From Janthinobacterium sp. CG3 (GTDB taxonomy: Bacteria > Pseudomonadota > Gammaproteobacteria > Burkholderiales > Burkholderiaceae_D), in assembly GCF_000344615.1 (NCBI RefSeq), contig NZ_KB467824.1, positions 3,414,326 through 3,478,325 on the forward strand: a stretch of 64,000 bases of DNA. Direction: 5' to 3'. This document shows positions 6,792 to 24,109 of this stretch, piece by piece. Under the pieces are notes generated by a model. It ran no database searches. It was given only the letters and a program-made list of their open reading frames with translations, and was not told where the DNA came from. The position numbers and the translations under genes are program-made. Within the stretch, counting starts at the first letter, position 1; each line of letters starts with the position of its first letter.

Positions 6792-6815
6792 GGGCGCACC
6801 GCCGCGCTTTTGCAG

Positions 6816-6845: not shown

Positions 6846-6902
6846 ATCGCCGGCCCGACAGCACCGCCGCGCCAGTCAAAACCGGCGGCGCAACCGCCAA
6901 AT

Positions 6903-7463: not shown

Positions 7464-7528
7464 GGAAGCGAGGCGGTTGCGTGTTAGTCGCCCAATTTAA
7501 ACGCCGTGCCGGGAAACCGCAAGGTTTA

Positions 7529-8524: not shown

Positions 8525-8572
8525 TGCGTAAGCTCCTCGTCAATAACATGTTTCCGTTGTCGGCAAGGACGC

Positions 8573-9211
8573 TTAGGTCTCGGCTTTGGTTGCGCTCGCC
8601 TGCATCGGCACGAAACCCGGCAGCGCTTCGACGCTACTCAACCAGTTACGCAGGTTTGCATACGGCTCCAGCGGAATGCCGCCTTCGGGCGCGTGCGCGA
8701 TGTAGCTGTAGCAGGCGATGTCGGCGATGCTTGGCTGGGTGCCGACCAGGAAGGCGCGCCCGGCCAGATGCGAGTCGAAAATCCCCAGCACTCGCACCGC
8801 GAGCGCCTGGGCCGCCGCGCGGTCGCACGGGACGCCAAACAGCGCCGCCGCCCGCGCCAGCGCCGGACCGCGGGCGATTTCCCCGGCCGCCACCGACAGG
8901 AAGCGCTGCACGGCGGCGGCGCCCTCGGCGTCGCGCGGCAGCCAGTGCGGCTCGCCATACTTGCTGGCCAGGTAGACCAGGATCGCGTTCGAGTCGGCCA
9001 GCGTCACATCGCCGTCCTCGATGACCGGCACCTGCCCGAACGGGTTCTTGGCCAGGAACGCCGGCTGCTTCTGCTCGCCGCCGCGCAAATCGACATAGAT
9101 CATTTCCACCGGCAAGTCCAGCAGCGACAGGAACAACTGGACCCGGTGCGCGTGCCCGGAAAGACGAAAACCGTACAGACGGATGGCTTGAGCGGGTTGG
9201 GGAGTTGGCAT
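8573..9211 (-). CDS. Glutathione S-transferase family protein
   Basis: The 212-residue protein has the two-domain GST layout. The thioredoxin-like N-terminal domain runs from IRLYGFRLSGHAHRVQLFLS, with the cis-proline/glutathione-binding region NPFGQVPVIEDGDVTLADSN (the Ser of the DSNAI motif contacts glutathione), and the helical C-terminal domain ends in FLVGTQPSIADIACYSYIAH. The start is ATG 9211 with AGGAA upstream; the longer frame is not used because the promoter lies within it. It is the first gene of a GST / PNPOx / TetR operon. The SGHAHRVQL motif (Ser, no Cys) places it among small bacterial GSTs of unknown substrate. Confidence 0.9.
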   Translation of the reverse strand: MPTPQPAQAIRLYGFRLSGHAHRVQLFLSLLDLPVEMIYVDLRGGEQKQPAFLAKNPFGQVPVIEDGDVTLADSNAILVYLASKYGEPHWLPRDAEGAAAVQRFLSVAAGEIARGPALARAAALFGVPCDRAAAQALAVRVLGIFDSHLAGRAFLVGTQPSIADIACYSYIAHAPEGGIPLEPYANLRNWLSSVEALPGFVPMQASATKAET

Positions 9212-9243
9212 GGCGGTTTTCCTGTGTAAAGTTGACCCCATCA

Positions 9244-9273
9244 ATAATACCGAACGTTCGGTACAGAAGTAAA
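9244..9273 (-). promoter_or_regulatory. Promoter of the GST operon with an embedded palindromic operator
   Basis: On the minus strand a -35 element TTTACT (9273-9268) and a -10 element TATTAT (9249-9244) are separated by 18 bp. The spacer holds a perfect 16-bp palindrome, TACCGAACGTTCGGTA, at 9248-9263. The ribosome site and ATG of the GST gene follow at 9211. A perfect palindrome filling the spacer is a typical repressor site, and the TetR-family gene at the end of the operon is the likely binder. That pairing is inferred. Confidence 0.75.
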
Positions 9274-9321
9274 CAACAATCGCGCCGCCAACGAAAAAAA
9301 ATCCGCCGCTTGTCGCTTCCC

Positions 9322-10107
9322 TCAAGCGCCGCGGCTGCGCTTGCGAAACTCTTCCGGCGTGATGCCCAGCATGCGGTGGAACATCGCGATAAAGGCCGAC
9401 GAGGTGCTATAACCCAGCTCCAGCGCGACCGACTGCACCGGCATCCTGGCGTCCAGCATCGGCAGCGCACTCACCAACCGCAGCCGCTGGCGCCATTCAC
9501 TGAAGGACATGCCGAGGTCGCGCTGGCAGCGCCGCGACAACGTGCGCTCGGTGCTGTGCACGGCCCGCGCCCACGCCTCCAGCGAGCGCTTGTCGCTGGG
9601 GGTTTTGCGCAACTCGGCCAGCACCTGGCCCAGCGTCGGGTCGTCCGACATCGGCAGGTAGCTGTCGTGCCGCGGCGCCAGGCCGAGCTGGTCGATCAGC
9701 ACCTGCACCAGGCGCGCGTCCTCGGCGCCGCGCGGGTAGTCGACCTTGCGCGCCGTCAGATCGGCCAGGATCGATGTGATGACCGGGCCGACCGCCAGCG
9801 TGCAGGTGTCCGCCGGCAGCCCGGCGCACAGCTCCCGCGACAGGTACAGCGAGCAAAACCACGCTTCGAAGCGGTTGCTGCCGGTGTGCTCGACCTCGGG
9901 CGGCAGCCAGATGCCGTAGTGCGGCGGCGCCAGGTAGCTGCGCTGCGCCAGCTTGACTTCCATGACGCCGCTGAACGAGTAGACGAATTCGCCCCAGCCG
10001 TGGCTGTGGCGCGGATAGGTGCTGTCGCTTTCTAGCTTTTCGCTGCGGATGTAGACCGGATGGGGCAGTTCGTCGCTGAACGGCGGCTGGCGCAGGTGTA
10101 CGGCCAT
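9322..10107 (-). CDS. AraC-family transcriptional regulator with cupin sensor
   Basis: A 261-residue regulator. The N-terminal half is a cupin-type sensor (YPRHSHGWGEFVYSFSGVME, then APPHYGIWLPPEVEHTG). The C-terminal half has two helix-turn-helix motifs: LEAWARAVHSTERTLSRRCQ and VQSVALELGYSTSSAFIAMF, ending in the conserved RMLGITPEEFRKRS. It is divergent from an EamA-family exporter across about 195 bp, an arrangement typical of cupin/AraC regulators controlling a neighbouring efflux gene. The effector is unknown. Confidence 0.9.
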   Translation of the reverse strand: MAVHLRQPPFSDELPHPVYIRSEKLESDSTYPRHSHGWGEFVYSFSGVMEVKLAQRSYLAPPHYGIWLPPEVEHTGSNRFEAWFCSLYLSRELCAGLPADTCTLAVGPVITSILADLTARKVDYPRGAEDARLVQVLIDQLGLAPRHDSYLPMSDDPTLGQVLAELRKTPSDKRSLEAWARAVHSTERTLSRRCQRDLGMSFSEWRQRLRLVSALPMLDARMPVQSVALELGYSTSSAFIAMFHRMLGITPEEFRKRSRGA

Positions 10108-10301
10108 TTTGTCCGAAGTGTCGTATTGTTTGTCTGGTTTTAACTATACCATCCCAAGCCGCCACCCCTATAATTGACCACAAGGGCGCAACTGCGCATC
10201 ACCGCAGCATTACGCGGCATAAAACAGGGAATAGCTATGTTCGCACTTCATCAACGGCGCGGCGTCGCGGAACGTGCCGCCGGCGCCACCGGGCGCACCG
10301 C

Positions 10302-11204
10302 ATGAGCGCCGCGCGCAAACCGCTCGACGGCTTCGCCGCGCTGGTGATGCTGGTGCTGTGCATGTGCTGGGGCTTGCAGCAGGTCGCGGTGAAGGCGACC
10401 GCCGTCAGCATGAGTCCGATGCTGCAGACCGGGCTGCGTTCCGGCGGCGCGGCGCTGATGGTGTGCGCGCTGATGTTTTGGCGCGGTAACGGTTTTTCGC
10501 TGCGCGACGGCACCTTCTGGCCCGGCATCGCCGCCGGCGTCTTGTTCGCCGCCGAGTTCCTGTGCGTCTCGCTCGGGCTGAACTACACCTCGGCCTCGCA
10601 TATCGTCGTGTTCCTATACGCGGCGCCGATTTTCACCGTGCTCGGTCTGAACTGGGGCGTGGCCGGCGAGCGTCTGGGGCGCATGCAGTGGGCCGGCATC
10701 GGCGCCGCTTTCGCCGGCATCGCGCTGGCGTTTTCAAATGGTTTCACCGGCGCCGGCACGGGCTGGAGCGACACGCTGATCGGCGACGGTTTCGCGCTGC
10801 TGGCCAGCCTGTTCTGGGCCGCCACCACCATCGTCGTGCGGCGCTCGTCGCTGTCGGAGGCGGCGCCCACCACTACGCTGTTGTATCAACTGGCGGTGGC
10901 GGCGGTGATTTTGATCGCCGTGGCCGTCGGCGACGGCGACGTGCAGGCGATTTCGATGACGGCCATGGCTTGGGTCAGCATGTTTTTCCAGGTCGTCATC
11001 GTCGCCTTTGCCAGCTACCTGGCGTGGTTCTGGATGTTGCGGCGCTATCTGGCCTCGCGCATTTCCGCGTTTTCGTTCATGACGCCGCTGTTCGGCGTCG
11101 GCTTCGGCGTGCTGCTGCTGGACGAGCAGTTGAGCGTGCGCTTCGCCGCCGGCGCCGTGCTGGTGTTGGCCGGTATCGTGATGGTCAATCTGCGCCGCAA
11201 TTGA
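10302..11204 (+). CDS. EamA-family (DMT superfamily) transporter
   Basis: A 300-residue inner-membrane protein with about ten predicted hydrophobic helices in two repeated EamA halves. The first half includes AALVMLVLCMCWGLQQVAVK and YTSASHIVVFLYAAPIFTVL; the second includes FALLASLFWAATTIVVRRSS and ISAFSFMTPLFGVGFGVLLL. EamA proteins usually export metabolites, amino acids or drugs. The substrate cannot be predicted. The divergent AraC gene is the likely regulator. Its stop is 1 bp from the stop of the convergent gene downstream. Confidence 0.9.
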   Translation: MSAARKPLDGFAALVMLVLCMCWGLQQVAVKATAVSMSPMLQTGLRSGGAALMVCALMFWRGNGFSLRDGTFWPGIAAGVLFAAEFLCVSLGLNYTSASHIVVFLYAAPIFTVLGLNWGVAGERLGRMQWAGIGAAFAGIALAFSNGFTGAGTGWSDTLIGDGFALLASLFWAATTIVVRRSSLSEAAPTTTLLYQLAVAAVILIAVAVGDGDVQAISMTAMAWVSMFFQVVIVAFASYLAWFWMLRRYLASRISAFSFMTPLFGVGFGVLLLDEQLSVRFAAGAVLVLAGIVMVNLRRN

Positions 11205-11205
11205 G

Positions 11206-11685
11206 CTATTGCCGCGCCGCCTGGCCGGTGAAGGGGACCGGGAACAGGTCGACGCCGGCCATTACGATGCCCTGGGCCAGGTAGATCATGTAGCCGGTCT
11301 CGCTGCCGCGGGTTTCGATGCGGTTCTGGCCGGTGCGGCTGTTGTCCTGGTACTTCGCGCCGGGCTTCACTTTCAGGAACAAGCCGTCCGGCGCGGACAG
11401 GCCGCAGGAGTGCGCGTCCATCTCGACGCCGACGCCGCCGGCGTTCAACTGCGCGCTGGTACCGGCGCGCATCGATGGCTCGGCCAGTTTCCAGGGGCCG
11501 TCGACGCGGCCGCCTTCGCGCGTGCTCAGCGCGTAGCCGGTCGGGGTTTTGACGATGTTGATGACGGCGACGCCGCCGGCGGCAAGCGCGTAGCTGCCGA
11601 CCAGCGCGTCGCAAGCGAGCGCGGCGCCTGGGGCCAGCACCAGCAGGGTCAGGGCCAGCGCGTTCAGGGGCAGTATGTTCGGCAT
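11206..11685 (-). CDS. Hypothetical secreted protein
   Basis: I do not recognise this 159-residue protein. It begins with a clear signal peptide (LPLNALALTLLVLAPGAALA, cleavage likely before CDALVG) and contains two cysteines, at the mature N terminus and in DAHSCGLS. The mature part looks like a small beta-rich domain: SYALAAGGVAVINIVKTPTG, then DGLFLKVKPGAKYQDNSRTG, and GYMIYLAQGIVMAGVDLFPV. It might be a lipoprotein if cleavage occurs at the Cys, but the preceding residues fit a lipobox only loosely. It is convergent with the EamA gene and 101 bp from the HAD gene. Confidence 0.7.
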   Translation of the reverse strand: MPNILPLNALALTLLVLAPGAALACDALVGSYALAAGGVAVINIVKTPTGYALSTREGGRVDGPWKLAEPSMRAGTSAQLNAGGVGVEMDAHSCGLSAPDGLFLKVKPGAKYQDNSRTGQNRIETRGSETGYMIYLAQGIVMAGVDLFPVPFTGQAARQ

Positions 11686-11786
11686 GGGGATGGCCTTGGT
11701 GACTGGAAAGGATGAAGTTTATAGCAAGCCGGTTGTTTTACATGTTCAATTGGCAATGTAAAACAAACCAGAGGCAGGGGCCGGGG

Positions 11787-12485
11787 TTACGTCTTGGGTT
11801 TTGTCAACGCGTCGATCAGGCCGGGTAGCTGCGCCATGGCGTCGAACGTGGCGTGGGCGCCGGCCGCCCGCAGCCGCGCGGCCTGCCCCGCCACTATGTG
11901 GCCGCCGCCGGTGAAGCCGAGCACGTACATGCCGGCCGCCGCCGCCGCGGTGACGCCGGTGACGCTGTCCTCGACCGCCGCGCAGGCGCCCGGCGCGACG
12001 TCGAAACCGCCGGCCGCCACCAGATACACGCCCGGGTGCGGTTTGGCGCTACCGACCAGGTCCGGCGTGTAGATGCGCGCGCCGAACAGCGGCGCCAGCC
12101 CGGTGCGGCCCAGCGCCGCGTGCACCCGCGCGCTGCTGCTGTTGCTGGCCACCGCCTTCGGCAGCGCGATCGCCGCCATGGCCGACGCCACGCCGGGCAC
12201 CAGCGCCAGCCGCAGGTCGCACTGCGCCTCCACCAGCGCGCGGATGGCGGCCAGCTCGGCTTCGCTGGCGTCGGCGCCACATTCCCCGAACACTTCCACC
12301 AGCAGCGGCGCCAGTTCGCGGCCCAGCAGCGGCCGGATCAGCCCTACCAGGCGCTCGCCGTCGCCGAAGCGCGGTTGCAGCGCCGACAGCAGCGCGTCCA
12401 GCGCCACCGCTTCGCTGTCGATCAGAACGCCGTCGCAGTCACTGACCAAATGGGTAATCGGGCCAATACGGCGGCTAGTCGGCAT
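11787..12485 (-). CDS. HAD-superfamily sugar-phosphatase-like hydrolase
   Basis: A 232-residue haloacid dehalogenase-fold hydrolase. Motif I is HLVSDCDGVLIDSEAVALD, with Asp nucleophile and Asp+2 in the DCDG form; motif II is the Ser in AVASNSSSARVHAALG; motif III is the Lys in GSAKPHPGVYLVAA; motif IV is CAAVEDSVTGVTAAAAAGM. This is the subgroup of beta-phosphoglucomutase and 2-deoxyglucose-6-phosphatase-like enzymes. I chose ATG 12485 (MPTSRRIGP) because the family motif begins soon after. It is divergent from the AraC regulator of the polyol operon and may remove phosphate from one of its intermediates, but that link is only positional. Confidence 0.85.
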   Translation of the reverse strand: MPTSRRIGPITHLVSDCDGVLIDSEAVALDALLSALQPRFGDGERLVGLIRPLLGRELAPLLVEVFGECGADASEAELAAIRALVEAQCDLRLALVPGVASAMAAIALPKAVASNSSSARVHAALGRTGLAPLFGARIYTPDLVGSAKPHPGVYLVAAGGFDVAPGACAAVEDSVTGVTAAAAAGMYVLGFTGGGHIVAGQAARLRAAGAHATFDAMAQLPGLIDALTKPKT

Positions 12486-12879
12486 GGGGGGCTCGCATGT
12501 GTATCTCCAATCGCAGTTGTTTAAGTCGGCGCGGCGCGGGGCGGCGCGCGCGTGAGCGGCGGCCAGCGTGGCCCGGACGCCGTAATCGTAGACGCCCGGG
12601 CGCCGGCGCACCACGTCGAATGGAAAGCATCTTCGATACTATTTTGTTGTTCCGTCGGAGCCAGATGCAAACGTATTGCATAGAAAATTGTGACGCGCTG
12701 CACCAAATTTGACATTTTTCCGCCTATCTACCGCCGGAATGCAAAAAAAGTATCAGTTAACCGCGCCATATGTAGTGGTGCAAGGCAGCTCAAGTACATA
12801 GAATGAAGCCATAAATGATGACAACGCGATCCGGCAAGGCAACAGCGCCGCGGTCAGCGAAGCATAACTGGAGACATGC
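12486..12879. promoter_or_regulatory. Gene-free divergent promoter region between HAD and AraC genes
   Basis: About 390 bp without a credible gene. Most of it is more AT-rich than the flanking coding DNA, as expected of promoters for two divergent genes. I see GGAG eight bases before the AraC start and no clear perfect palindrome. Short reading frames here are on both strands and look random. Confidence 0.5.
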
Positions 12880-13761
12880 ATGAAGCCCGATCTCGAACTG
12901 GTTTGTGTACGGCGCGACGAGTCCTTTACCGCCTGGTCGCATGGCTATCCCTATCGCACGGTGCGCTGGCACTTCCATCCCGAATACGAGATCCAGCTGA
13001 TCACCAGCACCACCGGCAAGTTCTTCGTCGGCGACTACATCGGCGATTTCGAGCCGGGCAACCTGGTGATGTCGGGGCCGAACCTGCCGCACAACTGGGT
13101 CAGCGAGCTGCCCGACCACCGTCCGGTGCAGCAGCGCTGCCTGGTGCTGCAATTTTCCAGCGAATTCATCGCCGACGCGATCCACGCCTTCCCCGAGCTG
13201 CAGCAGGTCGAGGCGCTGCTGGCCGAGTCGCGCAGCGGCTTGCTGTTCACGGCCGCCGCCGGCGTCGCCGCCAAGCCGTTGATGCTGGCGCTGTTGGAGG
13301 CCAAGGGCTGCCGCCGCGTGCTGTTGTTCCTGTCGCTGCTCGACCTACTGCTGCACGACGCCGGGCGGCGCCCGCTGGCCAGCCCGGACTACCTGCCCGA
13401 CCCGAACAGCTATATGTCGTCGAAGATCAACCTGGCGCTGGCCTACATCGGCAAGAACCTCTCGACCGACCTGCGCGAAACCGACCTGGCCGAGCTGACC
13501 GGGCAGAACGTCAGCTCGTTCTCGCGCTCGTTCCGCAAGCACACCGGGATCTCGTTCGTGCATTACGTGAACCAGCTGCGCATCCGCATTTCCTGCGAAA
13601 TGCTGACCAATAGCGAACTCAGTATCACCGAGATTTGCTACAAGGTCGGCTTCAACAACCTGTCCAATTTCAACCGCCAGTTCCTGGCGCAAAAAGGCAT
13701 TCCGCCGTCGAAGTTCCGCCGCTACGACGAGATGAAAACGGCGAGCGCCGCCACCGGCTAG
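12880..13761 (+). CDS. AraC-family regulator of the polyol operon
   Basis: A 293-residue regulator with an N-terminal cupin sensor (VRWHFHPEYEIQLITSTTGK, FEPGNLVMSGPNLPHNWVSE) and a C-terminal double helix-turn-helix (LRETDLAELTGQNVSSFSRS, LSITEICYKVGFNNLSNFNR, then GIPPSKFRRY). This architecture is typical of sugar-responsive activators. The gene lies 145 bp upstream of, and on the same strand as, the periplasmic sugar-binding gene of an ABC importer. That operon's promoter has a good -10 but no good -35, which fits activation. The start is ATG 12880 with GGAG upstream. Confidence 0.88.
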   Translation: MKPDLELVCVRRDESFTAWSHGYPYRTVRWHFHPEYEIQLITSTTGKFFVGDYIGDFEPGNLVMSGPNLPHNWVSELPDHRPVQQRCLVLQFSSEFIADAIHAFPELQQVEALLAESRSGLLFTAAAGVAAKPLMLALLEAKGCRRVLLFLSLLDLLLHDAGRRPLASPDYLPDPNSYMSSKINLALAYIGKNLSTDLRETDLAELTGQNVSSFSRSFRKHTGISFVHYVNQLRIRISCEMLTNSELSITEICYKVGFNNLSNFNRQFLAQKGIPPSKFRRYDEMKTASAATG

Positions 13762-13819
13762 CCGTCCCACCCACCTCCCCCCACCCTGCCGCCCCGCCAC
13801 CAGAAAAGGAGGCCGCGTA

Positions 13820-13891
13820 CTGCCCGAATTACGGGCAGCGCCACAGTGTTGCCCGTCGCAACAACGTCAAAACCCAAGCACCCATTATAAA
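13820..13891 (+). promoter_or_regulatory. Candidate control region of the polyol ABC operon
   Basis: Upstream of the binding-protein gene are two small inverted repeats: CTGCCCG and CGGGCAG around AATTA (13820-13838), and TGTTGC and GCAACA around CCGTC (13847-13863). A -10-like TATAAA sits at 13886-13891, with no good -35 at the right distance. The arrangement would suit an activator binding just upstream of the promoter. AraC proteins often use direct rather than inverted repeats, so assignment to the neighbouring regulator is tentative. Confidence 0.4.
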
Positions 13892-13906
13892 AACTAAGGA
13901 GACATC

Positions 13907-14830
13907 ATGTTCTACTCGAAAAAATTGATCGCATTGGCCGCTGGCCCGCTGGGCGCCATGCTACTGTCCGCCCCCGCCCCCGCCCTGGCCGCGCCGCTGA
14001 AGATCGGCATGTCGTTCCAGGAGCTGAACAACCCGTATTTCATCACGATGAAAAAGGCGCTGGAGGAAGCCGCCGCCACGCTGGGCGCCAGCGTCGTCAT
14101 CACCGACGCCCGCCACGACGTGTCGAAGCAAACCAGCGACATCGAGGACATGATCCAGAAGAAAATCGACATCCTGCTGCTGAACCCGACCGATTCGGTC
14201 GGCATCCAGTCGGCGGTGAAGTCGGCCCACGCCGCCGGCGTGATCACGGTGGCGGTGGACGCCAACGCCAACGGCCCGGTGGCTTCCTTCGTCGGCTCGA
14301 AGAACTTCGACGCCGGCCAGATGGCTTGCACCTTCCTGGCCAAGAACCTGGGCGGCAAGGGCGACGTCGCCATCCTCGACGGCATCGCCGTGGTGCCTAT
14401 CCTGGAGCGGGTGCGCGGCTGCAAGGACGCGCTGGCCAAGTTCCCGGAGATTAAAATCGTCACCACCCAGAACGGCAAGCAGGAACGCGACCAGGCCCTG
14501 ACCGTGACCGAAAACATCCTGCAGGCGAACCCCAAGCTGAAGGGCATCTTCAGCGTCAACGACGGCGGTTCGATGGGCGCGCTGTCGGCCATCGAGGCCA
14601 GCGGCAAGGACGTCAAGCTGACCAGCGTGGACGGCGCGCCGGAGGCGATCAAGGCCATCTTGAAGCCGAACTCGAAGTTCATCGCCACCGCCGCCCAGTA
14701 CCCGCGCGACCAGGTGCGCCTGGCGCTGGCCATCGCGCTGGCCAAGAAGTGGGGCGCCAACGTACCGGCCAGCGTGCCGGTCGAAGTGAAGCTGGTGGAC
14801 AAGGACGGCGCCAAGACCTTCAGCTGGTAA
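13907..14830 (+). CDS. Periplasmic sugar-binding protein of a ribose-type ABC importer
   Basis: A 307-residue substrate-binding protein of the RbsB/periplasmic-binding-protein-4 type. A signal peptide ends near ALAAPLKIG. The mature protein has the usual first motif GMSFQELNNPYFITMKKALE, the IDILLLNPTDSVGIQSAV loop, VDANANGPVASFVGSKN and GIFSVNDGGSMGALSAIEAS. The start is ATG 13907 with AAGGAG upstream. It is followed by ATPase and permease genes and then by a dehydrogenase, a kinase and an SDR. The substrate is therefore probably a sugar alcohol or a related pentose/tetrose; the binding protein alone does not say which. Confidence 0.92.
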   Translation: MFYSKKLIALAAGPLGAMLLSAPAPALAAPLKIGMSFQELNNPYFITMKKALEEAAATLGASVVITDARHDVSKQTSDIEDMIQKKIDILLLNPTDSVGIQSAVKSAHAAGVITVAVDANANGPVASFVGSKNFDAGQMACTFLAKNLGGKGDVAILDGIAVVPILERVRGCKDALAKFPEIKIVTTQNGKQERDQALTVTENILQANPKLKGIFSVNDGGSMGALSAIEASGKDVKLTSVDGAPEAIKAILKPNSKFIATAAQYPRDQVRLALAIALAKKWGANVPASVPVEVKLVDKDGAKTFSW

Positions 14831-14836
14831 CTCCGG

Positions 14837-14863
14837 GCGCCCCGCGGCCGCGGCCCGGGGCGC
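14837..14863 (+). promoter_or_regulatory. GC-rich hairpin between binding-protein and ATPase genes
   Basis: An 8-bp perfect GC stem (GCGCCCCG with CGGGGCGC) encloses an 11-base loop immediately after the binding-protein stop. There is no T-run. Such intercistronic hairpins in ABC operons commonly protect the upstream message or reduce read-through, so that binding protein exceeds ATPase. The effect here is inferred. Confidence 0.5.
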
Positions 14864-14890
14864 TGTTTCAAAAACGGCAAGAGGCACGCA

Positions 14891-16367
<1,477 letters not shown>

Positions 16368-16390
<23 letters not shown>

Positions 16391-17360
16391 CACCCCGCCC
16401 GCCGCCCCGGCCCCGGCCGCCGCGCTGTGGCGCGCCCTGGGCAAACAAGCGGCCTTCCTGCCCTTCGCCGGCTTGCTGCTGGTATGCGCGGTGATGATCG
16501 CCACCACCGAGCACTTCCTGTCGCTCGACAACCTGGTCAACATCGCGCGCCAGGTCTCGATCAACGCCATCATCGCCGTCGGCATGAGCTGCGCCATCAT
16601 CAGCGGCGGCATCGACCTGTCGGTCGGCTCGGTGATGGCGCTGACCGGCACCCTGAGCGCCGGCCTGATGGTGGCCGGCGTGCCGCCCGCCGCCGCCATC
16701 CCGATCGGCCTGGCGGTGGGCGTCGCCTTCGGCGTCGGCAACGGCTTCTTCGTCGCCTACGCCAAGATGCCGCCGATTATCGTCACGCTGGCAACGATGG
16801 GCATCGCCCGCGGCATGGCCCTGCTGTACACCGGCGGCTACCCGATCAACGACCTGCCGGCCTGGTTCGAGTTCTTCGGCAAGGGCAGCGTGCTAGGCGT
16901 GCAGGCGCCGATCCTGACCATGCTGCTGGTGTTCGCGCTGGCCTACGTGCTGCTCGAACACACGCCGCCGGGGCGCTACATCTACGCCATCGGCGGCAAC
17001 GAGGAGGCGACCCGCCTGAGCGGCGTGCGGGTGGCGCGCTACAAGCTGCTGGTGTACGCCATCAGCGGCTTCACGGCGGCCATCGCCGGGCTGGTGCTGA
17101 CGTCGCGCCTGATGAGCGGCCAGCCCAACGCCGGCGTCGGCTTCGAACTCGACGCCATCGCCGCCGTCGTCATGGGCGGCACCGCCATCACCGGCGGGCG
17201 CGGCTCCATCGTCGGCACCCTGATCGGCGCGCTCATGCTGGGCGTGCTCAACAACGGCCTGAACATGATGGGCGTCTCGCCCTACCTGCAAAACATCATC
17301 AAGGGCGTGATCATCCTGCTGGCCATTTACATCAGCCGCAACAACGGCAAGCGCGGCTAG
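16368..17360 (+). CDS. Sugar ABC transporter permease (RbsC type)
   Basis: A 330-residue inner-membrane permease of the BPD_transp_2 family. Recognisable segments are [20 protein letters not shown], the family signature in TM2-3, then [40 protein letters not shown] (the cytoplasmic coupling loop) and [20 protein letters not shown]. It starts inside the end of the ATPase gene, so the two are translationally coupled. Together with the upstream binding protein and ATPase it makes a complete importer. Confidence 0.95.
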
Positions 17361-17369
17361 CACCACACC

Positions 17370-17395
17370 AACGGCGCAAAGCCGGGGTCCGACCC
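17370..17395. repeat. GGGGTCCGACCCC palindrome-type repeat
   Basis: The gap between the permease and dehydrogenase genes contains GGGGTCCGACCCC, a 13-bp palindrome with one central base. It is flanked by AAGCC on the left and AGCCCTT on the right. A related element lies at 39272-39299. Repeats of this form appear in intergenic DNA of this bacterial group; the function is unknown. Confidence 0.45.
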
Positions 17396-17443
17396 CAGCC
17401 CTTGCCTTTGGTTTTATCCAACACTTTATCCAACGGAGTTTTT

Positions 17444-18541
17444 ATGCAATACACCGAAATCGACATGCAGGCCGTGGTCTGCCACGGCCCGCAAGACTAC
17501 CGCCTGCAAACCATCAAGCGCCCGCGCGCGCGCGCCAACGAGCTGGTGATCCGCATCGCCGCCTGCGGCATCTGCGCCAGCGACTGCAAATGCCATTCCG
17601 GCGCCGCCATGTTCTGGGGCGGCGAGGGCCAGCCGGGCTGGGTCAAGCCGCCGGTGGTGCCGGGCCACGAATTCTTCGGCTACGTCGTCGAGGCCGGCGA
17701 AGGCGCCGAGGGGCATTTCGGCGTCCAGGTCGGCGAGCGCATCATCGCCGAGCAGATCGTGCCGTGCGCGAAGTGCCGCTTTTGCACCTCCGGCAAATAT
17801 TGGATGTGCGAAGTCCACAACATCTTCGGCTTCCAGCGCGAGGTCGCCGACGGCGGCATGGCCGACTACATGCGCATTCCGCCGACCGCGCTGGTGCATA
17901 AAATCCCCGACGCCGTCTCGCTGGAGGACGCCGCCATCATCGAACCGATGGCCTGCGCGATCCACACCGTGAACCGCGCCGAGGTGCAGCTCGACGACGT
18001 GGTGGTGATCGCCGGCGCCGGCCCGCTGGGCCTGATGATGGTGCAGATCGCCGCGTTGAAAACGCCGAAGAAGCTGGTCGTCATCGACCTGGTGCAGGAG
18101 CGCCTCGACCTGGCGCTGGCCTTCGGCGCCGACGTCGCCATCAACCCGGCCAAGGACGACGCCATGGCGATCGTGCGCGCCCTGACCGGCGGCTACGGCT
18201 GCGACGTCTACATCGAAACGACCGGCGTGCCGGCCGGCGTGACGCAGGGCTTGAACCTGATCCGCAAGCTGGGCCGCTTCGTCGAATTCAGCGTGTTCGG
18301 CAAGGAGACCAGCGCCGACTGGTCCATCATCGGCGACCGCAAGGAACTCGACGTGCGCGGCGCCCACCTGGGACCGTACTGCTACCCGGTGGCGATCGAC
18401 CTGTTCGAGCGCGGCCTGATCACCTCGAAGGGCATCGTCACGCACGCCTTCGCGCTGGACGACTGGGAACGGGCGTTCGCGCTGGCGAACTCGCTCGACT
18501 CGATCAAGGTGCTGCTGAAACCGGCCGCGGCCCAGGGCTGA
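17444..18541 (+). CDS. Zinc-dependent MDR polyol dehydrogenase (erythritol/L-threitol dehydrogenase-like)
   Basis: A 365-residue medium-chain dehydrogenase. The catalytic zinc region is ACGICASDCKCH together with VVPGHEFFGYVVE; the structural zinc is held by the four cysteines of CAKCRFCTSGKYWMC; the NAD site is VVVIAGAGPLGLMMVQIAAL. Segments such as MFWGGEGQPGWVKPPVVPGH and GGYGCDVYIETTG, and SVFGKETSADWSIIGDRKEL, match my recollection of the erythritol/L-threitol dehydrogenase group. The start is ATG 17444, although the open frame extends far upstream. A kinase follows after 2 bp. The exact polyol is not established. Confidence 0.85.
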   Translation: MQYTEIDMQAVVCHGPQDYRLQTIKRPRARANELVIRIAACGICASDCKCHSGAAMFWGGEGQPGWVKPPVVPGHEFFGYVVEAGEGAEGHFGVQVGERIIAEQIVPCAKCRFCTSGKYWMCEVHNIFGFQREVADGGMADYMRIPPTALVHKIPDAVSLEDAAIIEPMACAIHTVNRAEVQLDDVVVIAGAGPLGLMMVQIAALKTPKKLVVIDLVQERLDLALAFGADVAINPAKDDAMAIVRALTGGYGCDVYIETTGVPAGVTQGLNLIRKLGRFVEFSVFGKETSADWSIIGDRKELDVRGAHLGPYCYPVAIDLFERGLITSKGIVTHAFALDDWERAFALANSLDSIKVLLKPAAAQG

Positions 18542-18543
18542 GC

Positions 18544-20121
18544 ATGGACGGCAAAGACTACGTCATCGGCGTCGACATCGGCACCCAGAGCACCAAGGCG
18601 CTGCTGGTCGACTGCGCCGGCGCCATCGTCGCCCAGCACGCGCGGGGCTACCAGGTCGACACGCCGCAGCCGCTGTGGGCCGAGCAGTGGCCGGACGTGT
18701 GGTACCAGGCGGTGCTGGAGTGCGTGGCGCAGGTGGTGCGCCAGAGCGGCCTGCGCGCCGAACAGATCAAGGCGCTCTGCGTGAGCAGCCTGTACGGCGG
18801 CTCCGGCATTCCGGTCGACGCCGACATGCGTCCGCTGCACCCCTGCCTGATCTGGATGGACCGGCGCGCCACCGCCGAGGTGGAATGGGTCCGGCAAACG
18901 CTCGACCTGGAGCGGCTCTACGACATCACCGGCAATTCGGTCGACAGCTACTACGGCTACACCAAGATGCTGTGGCTGCGGCGCCAGCGCCCGGAGGTGT
19001 GGCGCCGCACCCGCCAGTTCCTGCCGCCGAACAGCTACATCAACTACCTGCTGTGCGGCGAGGTCGCGGTCGACCACAGCTCGGCCGGCAATATCGGCGG
19101 CGTCTACGACATGCGCGGGCGCCGCTGGTCGCTGGAGATGCTGCAGCGGCTCGGCATTCCGGCCGCCATGATGCCGGCGCGCCTGGTCGACTCGTCCGAG
19201 GTGGTCGGCGGCCTGCTGCCGGCACTGGCGCAGCGCCTCGGCCTGCTGGCCGGCACGCCGATCGTCGCCGGCGGCGTCGACGCGGCGGTGGCCACCTTCG
19301 CCGCCGGCGTCAGCGGCGCCGGCCAGCACGTGGCGATGATCGGCACCAGCATGTGCTGGGGCTACATCAACCAGCGGGTCGATGCGCGCAACGGCCTGAT
19401 CAGCATGCCGCACGTGCACAACGGCGGCGAGGACTTGTACGTGTTCGGCGGCGCCATCGCGGCCGGCGCCTCGGTCAGCTGGTTCCGCGACGCGTTCTGC
19501 CAGGCCGACGTCGACGCCGCGCGCGCGCTCGGCCACGCCGATCCGCACCGGCTGATGGAGGACAGCGCCGCCAAGGTGCCGGCCGGCGCCGACGGCGTGC
19601 TGTTCCTGCCCTACCTGATGGGCGAGCGCAGCCCGATCTGGGACGCCAAGGCCAGCGGCGCCTTCGTCGGCCTGAGCCTGTACCACAGCCGCGCCCACCT
19701 GTACCGGGCGGTGCTGGAGGGCGTCACGTTCGCGCTCAAGCACAACATCGACGCCGGCGCCAAGGGCGCGCAATCGCTGGACGACAAACTGATCGTCGTC
19801 GGCGGCGCCGCCCACTCCGACCTGTGGATGCAGATCATCGCCGACGTCACCGGCTACCCGGTCTACACCATCGCCGAAAACGTCGAAGCGGCGCTGGGCG
19901 CGGCGCTGCTGGCGGCGCTGGGCACCGGCCTGGTGACGCCGCGGGCGGCGCGGCGCGGCTGGATTACGCTGGTGCCGCGCGCCGTGCCGGACGCCGCCGC
20001 CGGCGCCGTCTACCGCCGCGGCTTCGCGCTGTACCGCGAGCTGTATCCGGCGCTGAAACCGATCATGCACGGTTTGCAGGCGGCGCCGCAGCAGGCCGCC
20101 GAACAGCCTGCGTCACTTTAA
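18544..20121 (+). CDS. FGGY-family carbohydrate kinase
   Basis: A 525-residue sugar kinase with the two actin-like FGGY domains. The N-terminal phosphate-1 loop is VIGVDIGTQSTKALLVDCAG, the substrate region includes PLHPCLIWMDRRATAEVEWV, and the C-terminal ATP site includes DDKLIVVGGAAHSDLWMQII followed by the IAENVEAALGAALLAALGTG stretch. The group includes xylulokinase, L-ribulokinase and erythritol kinases; the sequence looks closest to the less-characterised kinases of polyol operons. It starts 2 bp after the dehydrogenase stop and is followed after 10 bp by an SDR. It probably phosphorylates the ketose formed by the dehydrogenases. Confidence 0.88.
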   Translation: MDGKDYVIGVDIGTQSTKALLVDCAGAIVAQHARGYQVDTPQPLWAEQWPDVWYQAVLECVAQVVRQSGLRAEQIKALCVSSLYGGSGIPVDADMRPLHPCLIWMDRRATAEVEWVRQTLDLERLYDITGNSVDSYYGYTKMLWLRRQRPEVWRRTRQFLPPNSYINYLLCGEVAVDHSSAGNIGGVYDMRGRRWSLEMLQRLGIPAAMMPARLVDSSEVVGGLLPALAQRLGLLAGTPIVAGGVDAAVATFAAGVSGAGQHVAMIGTSMCWGYINQRVDARNGLISMPHVHNGGEDLYVFGGAIAAGASVSWFRDAFCQADVDAARALGHADPHRLMEDSAAKVPAGADGVLFLPYLMGERSPIWDAKASGAFVGLSLYHSRAHLYRAVLEGVTFALKHNIDAGAKGAQSLDDKLIVVGGAAHSDLWMQIIADVTGYPVYTIAENVEAALGAALLAALGTGLVTPRAARRGWITLVPRAVPDAAAGAVYRRGFALYRELYPALKPIMHGLQAAPQQAAEQPASL

Positions 20122-20131
20122 GGGGAAGCAC

Positions 20132-20863
20132 ATGCGATTCGATTTCAGCGGCAAAAAAATCATGGTGACCGGCGCCACCAGCGGCATCGGCCTGGTCACC
20201 GCGCAACTGCTGCGAGCGGCCGGCGCCGCGGTCGTCGCGGTCGGGCGCGACCGCGCCAAGCTGGCCGCGCTGCAAGCCGACAGCAGTTGCGAGCCGCTGC
20301 CGCTGGACGTCGCCGACGGCGCCGCCATCGAGCGCGCGCTGGCCGGCGTGCGCGGCTTGGACGGCCTGGTCAACTGCTCCGGCGTGGCGCAACTGGAGTC
20401 GTGCCTGGAACTGCGCGGCGAGCACTTCGACCGCGTGATGGCGGTCAACGCGCGCGGCGCGGCGCTGGTGGCGCGCCACGTCGCCGCCGGCATGGTCGCC
20501 GAGCGGCGCGCCGGCAGCATCGTCAACGTCTCCAGCCAGGCCGCGCTGGTGGCGCTGGAAGAGCACCTGTCGTACTGCGCGTCGAAGGCGGCGCTGGACG
20601 CCATCACCCGCGTGATGTGCCTGGAACTGGGGCCGCACGGCATCCGCGTCAACAGCGTCAACCCGACCGTGACGCTGACGCCGATGGCCTTGCGGGCCTG
20701 GGGCGACCCGGCCAAGAGCGCGCCCATGCTACAGGCGATTCCGCTGCGCCGCTTCGCCCGGCCGGACGAGGTGGCGCGGCCCATCCTGTTCCTGCTGAGC
20801 GAGGCGGCGTCGATGATCAGCGGCGTCAGCCTGCCGGTGGACGGCGGCTACACCTGCCGTTAA
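20132..20863 (+). CDS. SDR-family oxidoreductase, L-xylulose reductase (DCXR)-like
   Basis: A 243-residue classical short-chain dehydrogenase. The cofactor site is VTGATSGIGLVTAQLL, with NCSG in place of the usual NNAG. The catalytic Ser is in IVNVSSQAALVAL, and Tyr and Lys are in LSYCASKAALDAI. Segments LELGPHGIRVNSVNPTVTLT and RAWGDPAKSAPMLQAIPLRR strongly resemble animal dicarbonyl/L-xylulose reductase, which interconverts L-xylulose and xylitol. This supports a pentitol or tetritol substrate for the operon. The ribosome site AGGGGAAG precedes the ATG, and it is the last gene of the unit. Confidence 0.85.
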   Translation: MRFDFSGKKIMVTGATSGIGLVTAQLLRAAGAAVVAVGRDRAKLAALQADSSCEPLPLDVADGAAIERALAGVRGLDGLVNCSGVAQLESCLELRGEHFDRVMAVNARGAALVARHVAAGMVAERRAGSIVNVSSQAALVALEEHLSYCASKAALDAITRVMCLELGPHGIRVNSVNPTVTLTPMALRAWGDPAKSAPMLQAIPLRRFARPDEVARPILFLLSEAASMISGVSLPVDGGYTCR

Positions 20864-21167
20864 GCGGCGGATTGTATCGCCCGCTTAACCCATTGAACGT
20901 CAGCCGACAACGTTGGCCGGGAGCGGCGCGCCTCGCTTCGGCCAACATGGCCGGATGGCGCCCGATCGGTTGATCCGGCCTACGGCACGCTAACTGGACG
21001 CCCCGCGGCGCCGCCACGCATGCCAAGCGGCACTAACAATTGCTTACACCTCCGTTACACCGGCGTCCGGCAATAGTTGCTACACTGCGCCGACATGAAA
21101 CCGCCCCCCTCCCTTCTGATTTAACGCGCCGACCGCCACGTTGGCCGTCCGTTTTGCATTGGCCAAC
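20864..21167. other. Gene-free stretch with two adjacent REP-like hairpins
   Basis: This 304-bp interval after the SDR gene has no credible gene. It holds a long hairpin at 20912-20946 (arms GTTGGCCGG and CGGCCAAC, with an inner AGCG/CGCT pair). A second palindrome, with GCCGGAT and ATCCGGC arms, lies at 20949-20980. No T-run follows either. The rest, 21005-21167, leads into the NRAMP-family gene and includes an inverted TTGGCC/GGCCAA pair at about 21141-21166. Confidence 0.55.
20912..20980. repeat. Paired REP-like palindromes (BIME-like)
   Basis: Two palindromes lie side by side: 20912-20946 with a GTTGGCC/GGCCAAC stem, and 20949-20980 with a GCCGGAT/ATCCGGC stem. The tail CTACGGCACGCTAACTGGAC (20980-20999) is nearly repeated at 24726-24745. 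Together with 6816-6845 these look like members of one dispersed intergenic repeat family. Confidence 0.5.
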
Positions 21168-22439
21168 ATGACATTATTTAAGCGCATCAGCAACCACGAG
21201 GCCGTCCAGGCGCTCGGTCCAGGCTTGATCACCGGCGCCGCCGACGACGACCCGTCCGGCATCGCCACCTATTCCCAAGCCGGCGCCCAGTTCGGCTTCA
21301 ACATGTTGTGGACGCTGGTGCTGACGTACCCGCTGATGGTCGGCATCCAACTGGTGTCGGCGCGCATCGGCCTGGTCACCGGGCGCGGCCTGGCCGCCAA
21401 CATCCGCCGCGCCTTCCCCGCTTGGCTGCTCTACAGCATCGTCTCGCTGCTGCTGGTGGCCAACATCATCAACATCGCCGCCGACGTCGCCGCGATGGGC
21501 CAGGCGCTGCGCCTGCTGACCGGCGTCGGCTCGGCGCACTTCTATTCGCTCGGCTGCGGCTTCCTCTGCCTGACCCTGCAAATCTTCCTGCCCTACCGCA
21601 CCTATGTGCGTTACCTGAAATGGCTGACCCTAGGCCTGCTGGCCTACGTCGCCACGGTGTTCGCCATCAAAATGCCCTGGACCGAGGTGGCGCGCCACAC
21701 CGTCTGGCCCAGCTTCACCTGGAACAAGGAGTCGGTGGCGATGATCGTGGCGATCTTCGGCACCACCATCAGCCCCTACCTGTTCTTCTGGCAAGCCTCG
21801 CAGGAAGTCGAGGAGTTGCGCGCCGACGGCGGCGGCCAGCCGCTGCGCAAGGCGCCGGAATACGCCGGCAAACACCTGCGCCGCATCAAACTCGACACTT
21901 ATATCGGCATGGGGTTTTCAAACCTGGTGGCCTACTTCATCATCCTGACGGCGGCCGCCACGCTGGGCGTGCACGGCATCAGCAACATCGACAGCTCGGC
22001 CCAGGCGGCCGAAGCGCTGCGGCCGATCGCCGGCGAATTCGCCTTCTTCATCTTCGCCATGGGCATCCTGGGCACCGGCCTGCTGGCGGTGCCGGTGCTG
22101 GCCGGCTCGGCCGCCTACGCGGTCACGGAAAGCTTCCGCTGGCCCAACGGGCTGGACCTGAAGGCGCTGGAGGCGCGTGAATTCTACGTCATTATCTCGC
22201 TGGCGACGATAGGCGGCATGGCGCTGAACTTCGCGCCGATCGACCCGATCAAGGCGTTGATCTGGTCGGCCCAGATCAACGGCGTGATCGCGGTGCCGAT
22301 CATGGTCGTGATGATGCTGCTGGCGCATAACAAGAGCGTCATGGGCCGCTTCACGCTGACGGCCCGCCACACCGCCATCGGCTGGATCGGCGTGGCGGTG
22401 ATGCTGGCGGCGGTGGTGGCGATGTTCGCCACCATGTAG
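21168..22439 (+). CDS. NRAMP-family metal transporter, atypical metal site
   Basis: A 423-residue inner-membrane protein with about eleven hydrophobic helices, of the NRAMP fold. TM1 carries GPGLITGAADDDPSGIATYS where classical Mn/Fe transporters have DPGN, and TM6 carries IFGTTISPYLFFWQASQEVE where they have the MPH motif. Asp and Pro of TM1 are kept, but the Asn and the TM6 Met and His are not. The metal may thus differ from Mn2+ or Fe2+. The ATG at 21168 (MTLFKRISNHEAVQ) is preferred to a TTG at 21141. It lies alone between the polyol operon and a lectin gene. Confidence 0.85.
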   Translation: MTLFKRISNHEAVQALGPGLITGAADDDPSGIATYSQAGAQFGFNMLWTLVLTYPLMVGIQLVSARIGLVTGRGLAANIRRAFPAWLLYSIVSLLLVANIINIAADVAAMGQALRLLTGVGSAHFYSLGCGFLCLTLQIFLPYRTYVRYLKWLTLGLLAYVATVFAIKMPWTEVARHTVWPSFTWNKESVAMIVAIFGTTISPYLFFWQASQEVEELRADGGGQPLRKAPEYAGKHLRRIKLDTYIGMGFSNLVAYFIILTAAATLGVHGISNIDSSAQAAEALRPIAGEFAFFIFAMGILGTGLLAVPVLAGSAAYAVTESFRWPNGLDLKALEAREFYVIISLATIGGMALNFAPIDPIKALIWSAQINGVIAVPIMVVMMLLAHNKSVMGRFTLTARHTAIGWIGVAVMLAAVVAMFATM

Positions 22440-22454
22440 GCGCAGCCGCGGCCC

Positions 22455-22817
22455 TTACTGGATCTTCAGGTCGCCGTCGATGTTGGCGATGTCGCCGTGG
22501 CCGGCGATGTAGCGGGTGATGTCGAGCGTCGCCCATTGCCAGCTGCCGTCGATCTTTTGACAGTACGCCGACAGCACCACCGAGACGTTTTCGGTGGTCT
22601 GTTTGTAACTGCCGTTGGGCACGAAGCCGGCGCTGGGCGCGGCGTCGTTTTCCGCCTGCAGCGAACCGTCCAGGTTGACCAGGCCGCCCGACAGGTTGGT
22701 GATGTTGGCGCCGCTGGCGACCCAGCTCTGGTCGCGGCGCTGCGCCTTGCCGTACAGGTTGGAATTGATCTGGGTGGCAGTTCTTTGATAGCTGCCGGAT
22801 GGAACGAATCGAGACAT
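22455..22817 (-). CDS. CVNH (cyanovirin-N homology) domain lectin-like protein
   Basis: A 120-residue protein made of two similar halves. Half one runs from FVPSGSYQRTATQINSNLYG to GGLVNLDGSLQ; half two runs from FVPNGSYKQTTENVSVVLSA to IANIDGDLKIQ. The NLDGSL/NIDGDL endings and the internal duplication are the mark of the cyanovirin-N fold, which binds oligomannose glycans. Only one cysteine is present (AYCQK), so the disulphides of cyanovirin-N are absent, and there is no signal peptide; it is probably cytoplasmic unless exported by another route. The start is ATG 22817 with AGGGAG upstream. The natural ligand is unknown. Confidence 0.82.
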   Translation of the reverse strand: MSRFVPSGSYQRTATQINSNLYGKAQRRDQSWVASGANITNLSGGLVNLDGSLQAENDAAPSAGFVPNGSYKQTTENVSVVLSAYCQKIDGSWQWATLDITRYIAGHGDIANIDGDLKIQ

Positions 22818-23140
22818 GGTGACTCCCTGTTGGACTGTAAAGCGTCGCTTTGTCACAGCCATCTTTTTACCCGCGGCGCAAAGGCAAAAAGAACAAACTC
22901 TGGCGCCGCTACCCGGACCCGGCGTCGTATCAATATGGAACAGTTTCGTGCAAATTTTCCGACCTATGCTCTCCAATTGTCACCCGCATCAAAACAGGCA
23001 TGACACAAATAAACCTTGCTGGCCCTAGCTCAAGATTGCTTGCTTTTCGTAATGTCGGAACATGACTAGACGTGACGAAATATGTCATCCATGGCCAGCG
23101 GATGACCTATTTCATCAGTCCTCGCGGGAACGCCGGGAAC

Positions 23141-24109
23141 TTATTTGAGCCAGCCGCGGCGGCGGAAGTACCAAAACGGCGCGATCGCGCTGGTGATCAT
23201 CAGCGCCAGCGCGAAGGGATAGCCGAGCGACCAGTCCAGTTCCGGGAACCAACCCTTGAAATTCATGCCGTAGATGCTGGCGATCAAGGTCGGCGGCAGG
23301 AAGGCGACGCTGGCCACCGAGAAGATCTTGATGATCTTATTTTGGTTGATGTTGATGAAACCGACGGTGGCGTCCATCAGGAAGTTGATCTTATCGAACA
23401 GGAAAGAGGTGTGGCCGTCCAGGGATTCGATATCGCGCAGAATTTGGCGCGCCTCCTCGAATTGCTCGGAATTGAGCAGGCGCCCGCGCATCAGGAAGCT
23501 GACGGCGCGGCGCGTGTCCATCATGTTGCGGCGGATGCGCCCGTTCAAATCTTCCTCGTGGGCGATGGAGTTCAGCGCGGCGGCCGCGTCCTGGTCGGTG
23601 AACTCTTCCTGCAGCACGCGGCCGCTGACCTCTTCCAGGTTCTGGTAAATGCCCTCGAGCGCGTCGGCCGAATACTCGGCGTCGGTGGCGTACAGGTCCA
23701 GCAGCACGTCCATGTAGTCGGCGATCGAACCGGGCCGCGAGCGCGCGCGCATGCGCACCAGGCGGAACACCGGCAGGTCGTCGGTATGCACCGAGAACAA
23801 CATTTTCTTGGCCAGGATGAAGGCCACGGTGACGATGCGCGACGGCCCGTCGTCCTCTTCCAGCAGGAAGTCGGTGCGCAAGTGCAGGTCGCCGTTTTCC
23901 GCCTCGTAATAGCGGGCCGACGCCTCGATGTCCTTGACTTCGTCTTCGCCCGGCAGCGTGACGCCGTAGATCGCCTTGACCCAGGCGCGCTCGTCGTCGT
24001 TCGGGTCGGTCAGGTCGACCCAGACCGGCTCCACGCTTTCCAAGTCGGTGCGGCTGTCGATCGGCACCTGGTTGAGCCGGCCATTTTGTAAAACAAAGAC
24101 ATTGATCAT
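23141..24109 (-). CDS. corA: Magnesium/cobalt transporter CorA
   Basis: A 322-residue CorA-family channel. The large N-terminal cytoplasmic domain (WVDLTDPNDDERAWVKAIYG onwards) is followed by two C-terminal membrane helices. The pore signature is IASIYGMNFKGWFPELDWSL, containing GMN, and the chain ends in FALALMITSAIAPFWYFRRR followed by a positively charged tail. It transports Mg2+ (and Co2+/Ni2+) across the inner membrane. It appears to be a single-gene unit. Length and motifs are standard. Confidence 0.95.
   Translation of the reverse strand: MINVFVLQNGRLNQVPIDSRTDLESVEPVWVDLTDPNDDERAWVKAIYGVTLPGEDEVKDIEASARYYEAENGDLHLRTDFLLEEDDGPSRIVTVAFILAKKMLFSVHTDDLPVFRLVRMRARSRPGSIADYMDVLLDLYATDAEYSADALEGIYQNLEEVSGRVLQEEFTDQDAAAALNSIAHEEDLNGRIRRNMMDTRRAVSFLMRGRLLNSEQFEEARQILRDIESLDGHTSFLFDKINFLMDATVGFININQNKIIKIFSVASVAFLPPTLIASIYGMNFKGWFPELDWSLGYPFALALMITSAIAPFWYFRRRGWLK

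What the first reader, a model, noticed from the sequence alone, without database searches (positions are those of the whole stretch)
22455..22817. Stand-alone cyanovirin-N-type lectin with one cysteine
Two internal repeats ending NLDGSL and NIDGDL identify a CVNH fold. Classical cyanovirin-N has two disulphides; this protein has a single Cys and no signal peptide. A disulphide-free, probably cytoplasmic CVNH protein in a betaproteobacterium has an unclear glycan ligand and role.
Basis: partly seen in the sequence, partly recalled or inferred. Interest (0 to 1): 0.6.

Follow-up and report, generated by a model that had tools for sequence, protein, structure and literature searches.

The report
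Divergent cyanovirin-type lectin lacking disulphides
A bacterium related to Janthinobacterium carries a small gene for a cyanovirin-like, probably sugar-binding protein without disulphide bonds; such proteins are already known, but a conserved RNA fold just in front of the gene seems to travel with it.

Summary
In detail: 22455-22817 (minus) encodes 120 aa with two internal repeats, one Cys and no signal-like start. It is homologous to CVNH proteins: profile comparison with an alignment that includes a clear CVNH gives 98.3%, at most 7.7% in 40 shuffles. Yet it scores just under Pfam's cut-off (22.3 against 24.5 bits); one of six orthologs passes (24.6). Lack of disulphides is not new: a solved fungal CVNH (2jzl) shows one Cys in the 105 residues seen. 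The gene is patchy (4 of 40 genomes of the genus), under purifying selection and without conserved partners, which fits an optional cytoplasmic lectin. Glycan and role are not shown; several sugar-contact positions differ from CV-N. Unexpected: about 25 nt before the ATG, seven aligned ortholog leaders can form all or part of an H-type pseudoknot with compensatory changes. Rfam has no match there; strong matches in the genomes searched lie only before this gene, also where it sits at unrelated loci. Verdict: a divergent but ordinary CVNH lectin, with a leader RNA worth testing.

The parts
22455..22817 (-). CVNH-like lectin gene, 120 aa (P0001)
   Evidence: ORF; CVNH homology; purifying selection
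22650..22808 (-). Internal repeat 1 (residues 4-56), ends NLDGSLQAE; CV-N Cys8 and Cys22 positions are Ala14 and Ala25
22458..22625 (-). Internal repeat 2 (residues 65-120), ends NIDGDLKIQ; CV-N Cys58 position is Thr75
22560..22562 (-). Codon of the only cysteine, C86 (aligned to CV-N Cys73), invariant in the seven aligned orthologs
22823..22828 (-). Ribosome-binding sequence AGGGAG
   Evidence: read; similar purine-rich sequence in the other leaders
22842..22888 (-). Candidate leader pseudoknot: stem 1 = 22888-22882 with 22872-22866; stem 2 = 22879-22873 (in the loop of stem 1) with 22848-22842
   Evidence: in the window stem 2 has one C-A mismatch (6 of 7 pairs)
22954..22983 (-). Weak promoter-like site; its first hexamer lies in a block GTGAYNATTNNNGAGYAT found 161-172 nt before the ATG in 4 of 4 Janthinobacterium loci
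   Evidence: consensus match only
23141..24109 (-). CorA family gene upstream of the lectin gene; neighbour in 4 of 4 Janthinobacterium carriers
21141..22439 (+). Nramp family gene, convergent neighbour; next to the lectin gene in 2 of 4 Janthinobacterium carriers (window, L021)

Best explanation
This is a soluble, cytoplasmic, divergent CVNH lectin. Two about 50-residue repeats are expected to fold together into one pseudo-symmetric molecule with two glycan sites (inferred from homology). Being unexported, it has no need of the two disulphides of cyanovirin-N; Ala14, Ala25 and Thr75 replace three of the four Cys. Most likely it is an optional weapon or adhesin: stored in the cell, set free when cells lyse or are eaten, where its two sites crosslink glycans (probably mannose-rich) of fungi, protozoa, nematodes or competing microbes. 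Shown here: homology, repeats, Cys pattern, lack of a signal-like start, purifying selection, patchy distribution, no shared partner gene in the neighbourhoods read. Inferred: fold, cytoplasmic location, sugar binding, release, target.
For: Full-length alignment with a clear CVNH protein (blastp 32% over 118 positions; that protein scores 53.1 bits with Pfam CVNH); hhalign 98.3% against at most 7.7% in 40 column shuffles and 0.6% reversed. NCBIfam mannose-binding lectin NF052356 matches residues 9-118 of P0001 with E 4.8e-8 and matches 7 of 7 orthologs, below its cut-off of 80 bits in P0001. dN/dS 0.07-0.30 for 6 of 6 orthologs against the window, some with saturated dS. N48, D50, G51, N112 and G115 are invariant in 7 of 7. 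Patchy: 4 of 40 genomes of the genus, 1 of 15 and 1 of 7 in two other genera. Neighbours differ between genera, which argues against a fixed pathway. Fungal lectins stored in the cytoplasm and acting on ingestion are described (PMC10512399, abstract and passages).
Against: No binding, expression or phenotype data. P0001 is under Pfam's gathering score, as are five of six orthologs. At CV-N contact positions (list recalled) the window has Val47 for Glu41, Ile89 for Arg76 (Arg in 5 of 7 orthologs), Ser9 for Lys3, Arg12 for Gln6 and Gln26 for Glu23, so mannose specificity cannot be carried over. Asp114 is Asn in 2 of 7. The structure prediction failed (pLDDT 32.7). Nothing links the gene to grazing or lysis.
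Confidence: 0.45

Rival explanations
1. An intracellular carbohydrate-binding protein with a housekeeping ligand: it binds the bacterium's own polysaccharide or glycan intermediates.
For: No signal-like start; purifying selection.
Against: No match in 36 of 40 genomes of the genus; no neighbour is shared between genera.
Confidence: 0.18
2. A protein delivered by a signal-less secretion route, a lectin that acts outside living cells on rivals or hosts.
For: Optional, patchy gene at a variable locus, as for many interaction genes.
Against: No secretion gene is shared by the neighbourhoods read (the output was cut); a pilus or type II-like cluster lies near it in one genome only (L022, named by eye).
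Confidence: 0.15
3. A CVNH scaffold reused for a non-sugar ligand, with one conserved free Cys (C86) near former site B.
For: C86 is invariant in 7 of 7 while several sugar-contact side chains differ.
Against: Both Asn-x-Asp-Gly loops are largely kept; the NCBIfam hit is a mannose-binding lectin.
Confidence: 0.15
4. Not a CVNH protein at all but an unrelated beta-repeat protein.
For: Below the Pfam and NCBIfam cut-offs; fold prediction uninformative.
Against: Shuffle-controlled profile match; full-length alignment with a clear CVNH; the 4 PDB sequences at E up to 1 are three named cyanovirin-N and one mannan-binding lectin, 2y1s; ortholog L012 passes the Pfam cut-off (24.6 bits).
Confidence: 0.03

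Closest known systems
Cyanovirin-N (Nostoc ellipsosporum) and the CVNH lectins of PDB 2y1s and 5k79 (Microcystis and Cyanothece by recall)
   Same: Two tandem about 50-residue repeats, N-x-D-G loops, same order of conserved positions
   Different: CV-N has two disulphides (C8-C22, C58-C73; PMC3645700 passages); here one Cys only, longer repeats, several contact side chains changed
Fungal CVNH, PDB 2jzl (Neurospora crassa by recall; the table names it Cyanovirin-N homolog)
   Same: Single Cys in residues 5-109 of 114, hence no CV-N-type disulphide in the part seen
   Different: Its Cys lies a few positions away from the one here (by eye); eukaryotic source
CVNH protein of a Nostoc plasmid (L047, NZ_CP117772.1)
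   Same: Stand-alone, two repeats, no signal-like start, 32% identical over 118 aligned positions
   Different: Three Cys: full pair in repeat 1, one of two in repeat 2
Apparently exported bacterial CVNH proteins (Rhizobium L046, Sinorhizobium L051)
   Same: CVNH repeats
   Different: Signal-peptide-like N termini and a Cys pair in every repeat; three repeats in Rhizobium
NCBIfam NF052356 mannose-binding lectin
   Same: Match over residues 9-118
   Different: 33.6 bits against a cut-off of 80, so not a member of that equivalog

Membership tests
CVNH (Pfam PF08881) | Profile score over the curated cut-off (24.5 bits) | tested here: not met
   22.3 bits; of six orthologs one passes (24.6), five do not (18.0-23.9). 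I therefore call it a divergent CVNH homolog, not a curated member.
CVNH (Pfam PF08881) | Significant full-length homology to accepted CVNH proteins | tested here: met
   hhalign 98.3% with the L047+L046 alignment, 40 shuffles at most 7.7%; L047 itself is CVNH at 53.1 bits
CVNH (Pfam PF08881) | Two tandem repeats of about 50 residues | tested here: met
   0 of 5000 shuffles reach the repeat score
CVNH (Pfam PF08881) | CVNH fold | tested here: inconclusive
   AlphaFold2 with 4 sequences gave pLDDT 32.7
CVNH (Pfam PF08881) | Glycan binding | not testable with these tools
   needs protein; contact positions only partly kept (contact list recalled)
Cyanovirin-N proper | Two disulphides C8-C22 and C58-C73 | tested here: not met
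   A14, A25, T75, C86 in the window
NCBIfam NF052356 mannose-binding lectin | Score over 80 bits | tested here: not met
   33.6 bits
Known riboswitch or leader RNA (Rfam 15) | Match to a family at the leader | tested here: not met
   6 matches at E up to 5 in seven loci: two tRNAs and four below gathering, none on the leader

The most novel reading that the evidence does not exclude
The lectin gene moves between Burkholderiales together with its own leader RNA: an unclassified H-type pseudoknot that ends 23-25 nt before the start codon and controls translation or stability of this one gene, perhaps by sensing a small molecule or a growth state. This would be a new, gene-specific cis-regulatory RNA in front of a CVNH lectin.
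Probability: 0.4. Interest if true: 0.5.

Novelty: new member of a known kind. Interest (0 to 1): 0.32.

Why it matters
As a protein it widens the CVNH family by a divergent, disulphide-free group in Burkholderiales that the standard domain cut-off mostly misses (six of seven orthologs). A small, single-Cys CVNH that should fold in the reducing cytoplasm of E. coli would be easy to produce and test as a glycan reagent. The leader pseudoknot, if confirmed, would be a handle on when such bacteria make a cytoplasmic lectin, and so on what the lectin is for.

Tried and rejected
Rows dropped: 6 of the 10 matching genomes (and L017-L019) have open frames of 529-574 aa with one CVNH repeat and a signal-like start; they, L004 (two-repeat protein, 340 aa as typed) and L052 were left out of the ortholog alignment A2.

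I did not hand in rows from genome-search loci, since the rule does not list them.

Mobile or phage origin: no match in phages or in viral contigs with this protein or its alignment or with the Nostoc protein; these viral scans reach close relatives or conserved peptides only. In plasmids two distant relatives and, with the Nostoc query, one further record. tRNA genes lie near the gene in two genomes outside the genus (Thr, about 310 nt upstream in L016; Arg, about 720 nt downstream in L003), but not in the other four loci of that call or in the window, so tRNA-site integration was not adopted.

Tree of seven orthologs plus the Nostoc protein: of five inner branches none reached the tool's star level and four were drawn open; transfer between families is suggested by the unrelated loci, not by the tree.

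Leader as a DNA operator: stem 1 is a palindrome in some loci, but in others its arms match only through G-U pairs, which favours RNA. Leader as a widespread riboswitch: not supported, since the model matches 4 of 40 genomes of the genus, all carriers, and 6 of 399 in the order, own and G548 strongly and four at E 0.003-0.01, about what 399 genomes give by chance. Limits: only 118 first-look candidates a genome were scored and 11, the latter with stricter filters, so weak copies may be missed. By eye, one of the four weak matches (L058) could form both stems. Results against the pseudoknot: single-sequence folding of the window leader is unremarkable (z -1.34) and prefers a nested alternative; in my own pseudoknot scan the window and L020 prefer other helices (24 and 16 of 300 shuffles as good) and L011 is matched by 37 of 300 shuffles, while L021, L022, L023 and L013 are matched by 0, 4, 3 and 3 of 300.

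My notebook entry calls L052 a degenerate copy; that was wrong: its TAG ends a Cys-containing CVNH repeat protein.

CVNH with Janthinobacterium and 'CVNH domain' with proteobacteria found 0 papers; only open-licence PMC papers are held, so this says little about print in general. Passages were read in PMC3645700, PMC4425051, PMC8707200, PMC11857070, PMC13027065, PMC10512399 and PMC4926178; no paper was read whole.

Full report
What is there. Window 22817 to 22455 (minus strand) is an open reading frame of 120 aa with a good ribosome-binding sequence. Its two halves align with score 84, which 0 of 5000 shuffles reach. It has one Cys, C86.

Is it a CVNH protein? Pfam's CVNH model gives 22.3 bits against a cut-off of 24.5; of six orthologs one passes at 24.6 bits and five do not. 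A search of the own genome with the Pfam model finds nothing. NCBIfam's mannose-binding lectin NF052356 matches residues 9-118 with E 4.8e-8, below its cut-off, and matches 7 of 7 orthologs. The 4 PDB sequences with E up to 1 are three named cyanovirin-N and one named mannan-binding lectin (2y1s). A Nostoc plasmid protein that is a clear Pfam CVNH (53.1 bits) aligns over nearly the whole length (32% over 118 positions). Profile comparison of the seven orthologs with that protein plus two repeats of a Rhizobium CVNH protein gives 98.4% (98.3% when repeated locally), against a best of 7.7% in 40 column shuffles and 0.6% for the reversed profile. I therefore call it a divergent CVNH homolog, while stating that the window protein itself fails the curated cut-off. 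The fold is unproven: AlphaFold2 on four sequences gave mean pLDDT 32.7.

Cysteines. Alignment with CV-N puts A14, A25, T75 and C86 at CV-N positions 8, 22, 58 and 73, whose Cys form its two disulphides (PMC3645700, passages). C86 is invariant in the seven aligned orthologs and none of them has another Cys. This is not new in kind: the solved CVNH 2jzl (N. crassa by recall) shows one Cys in residues 5-109 of 114 (residues 1-4 and 110-114 were not seen). The Nostoc protein has three Cys. Among the relatives compared, the seven with a signal-like N terminus (L046, L051, L008, L017, L019, L048, L050) keep a Cys pair per repeat, and those without have lost one (Nostoc), two (L004) or three (this group) of the four canonical Cys (sequences; judged by hydropathy and by eye). 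The simple reading is that disulphides went where the protein stays in the reducing cytoplasm.

Distribution. Orthologs over the whole length were found in 4 of 40 genomes of the genus, 3 of 294 of the family sample, own genome included (7 further genomes have only distant relatives), 2 of 399 of the order sample, own included (2 more distant), and 1 of 398 of the phylum sample, the own genome (1 more distant). In some searches at most 11 first-look candidates a genome were scored. In the genus of G175 it is 1 of 15, in that of G548 1 of 7. Named orthologs: Janthinobacterium fluminis, a Janthinobacterium MAG and a Rhizobacter MAG. With the Pfam model 3 of 349 genomes of the phylum sample match, all one genus, by one repeat. 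dN/dS against the window is 0.07-0.30 for six orthologs (dS is saturated for some).

Context. In 4 of 4 Janthinobacterium carriers the gene follows CorA in the same orientation. In 6 of 6 non-carrier Janthinobacterium loci that I fetched (of 36 non-carriers) CorA and four genes upstream of it (mtgA-, aroE-, TonB- and RNase-like, named by eye) are kept and no lectin gene is seen. The interval between CorA and a hemL-like gene (named by eye) is variable: the lectin gene, Nramp, a sugar-related operon (window; permease, FGGY kinase and SDR by Pfam), a HAD-like gene (L043, by eye); next to CorA in L039 lies an Rhs-like gene (by eye). In G175, G548 and the Rhizobacter MAG the gene lies among other genes (the output was cut). 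No partner gene was seen to be shared, so it works alone or with unlinked genes.

Function. CV-N has two glycan sites, A from the ends of the chain and B from the middle (PMC4926178, passages). The Asn-x-Asp-Gly loops of both are largely kept here (N48, D50, G51, N112, G115 invariant; D114 is Asn in 2 of 7). Several other contacts that I recall for CV-N are not. A two-site lectin is therefore likely and its exact sugar open. Fungal cytoplasmic lectins that act when the cell is eaten (PMC10512399, abstract and passages) offer the best working model; other bacterial lectins without signal peptides are recalled, not looked up. This step is inference.

The leader. The 80 nt before the ATG are similar between orthologs whose genes sit at unrelated loci. 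RNAalifold on the seven leaders finds, unprompted, a 7-bp helix between GCGCCGC and GCGGCGC. A second helix that I named by eye (TTTGCCA with TGGTAAA) encloses the first arm, so that the two form an H-type pseudoknot ending 23-25 nt before the ATG. On the MAFFT alignment 83.7% of cells pair (0 of 500 shuffles as high; slid versions 29-46%), covariation score 0.327 (3 of 500), cells changed on both sides 7 (11 of 500), further pair types 15 (21 of 500), pairs changed on both sides 5 (33 of 500), although two rows are out of register for stem 1; the tool warns that related sequences can exceed such shuffles without structure. By sequence, stem 1 has 7, 7, 3, 7, 6, 7 and 7 of 7 pairs and stem 2 has 6, 7, 7, 7, 7, 6 and 5 of 7, in the order window, L011, L020, L021, L022, L023, L013, with L022 and L023 read one base shifted. 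On the model-fitted alignment stem 1 pairs in 95.7% of cells (0 of 500), with 6 double changes (0 of 500), but that alignment leans to the structure. A covariance model from four leaders finds the other three (L020, L022, L023) at E 8e-8 to 6e-6, exactly at the start codon; it uses sequence, ribosome-binding site included, as well as stem 1, and three further matches elsewhere have E 0.08-0.6. Rfam has nothing there. With a model from all seven, the element is found in 4 of 40 genomes of the genus, all carriers, and in the order sample in two carriers plus four weak matches at chance level (few candidates scored a genome). Of 18 loci with CVNH proteins given, only the G175 ortholog locus L003 has it; the 17 with other CVNH proteins do not match at E up to 1. 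Against it: seven related sequences are few; the window's stem 2 has a C-A mismatch and its leader folds no better than expected (z -1.34); L020 keeps only 3 of 7 pairs of stem 1; in my own scan three of seven leaders are not exceptional; transcription start is unknown.

Verdict. As a protein it is a new, divergent member of a known kind, and its headline oddity is precedented. The leader is the more interesting part.

Noticed in passing
window 22842-22888 (minus strand) and the same place in L011, L013, L020-L023: Candidate H-type pseudoknot in the leader of the lectin gene, with compensatory changes, no Rfam match, kept at unrelated loci.
   Followed up: yes
L005-L010, L017-L019: Proteins with open frames of 529-574 aa, a signal-like start, a single N-terminal CVNH repeat and a long C-terminal part with a CxxCH motif (by eye); no Pfam match for the one tested (L008). 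A lone repeat should not make the usual two-repeat fold by itself.
   Followed up: partly
L004 (G106): About 340-aa protein with two CVNH-like repeats, no signal-like start and a further C-terminal part; its only Pfam hit is below cut-off (DUF3612).
   Followed up: partly
L046 (NZ_CP050305.1, Rhizobium lusitanum plasmid): Apparently exported protein with three tandem CVNH repeats, an odd number for a fold built from pairs.
   Followed up: no
L048-L050: Proteins with one CVNH repeat followed by what looks like beta/gamma-crystallin repeats (by eye).
   Followed up: no
L052 (G175): The genome with a disulphide-free ortholog also carries a Cys-containing CVNH repeat protein.
   Followed up: partly
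window 6788-23141 and L039-L044: The stretch between CorA and the hemL-like gene is a variable slot in Janthinobacterium: lectin, Nramp, sugar-related operon, HAD-like or Rhs-like genes in different genomes (several names by eye).
   Followed up: partly
4 Janthinobacterium loci, 161-172 nt before the lectin ATG (window about 22983): Conserved block GTGAYNATTNNNGAGYAT, possibly part of the promoter; not found in the three leaders from other genera.
   Followed up: no
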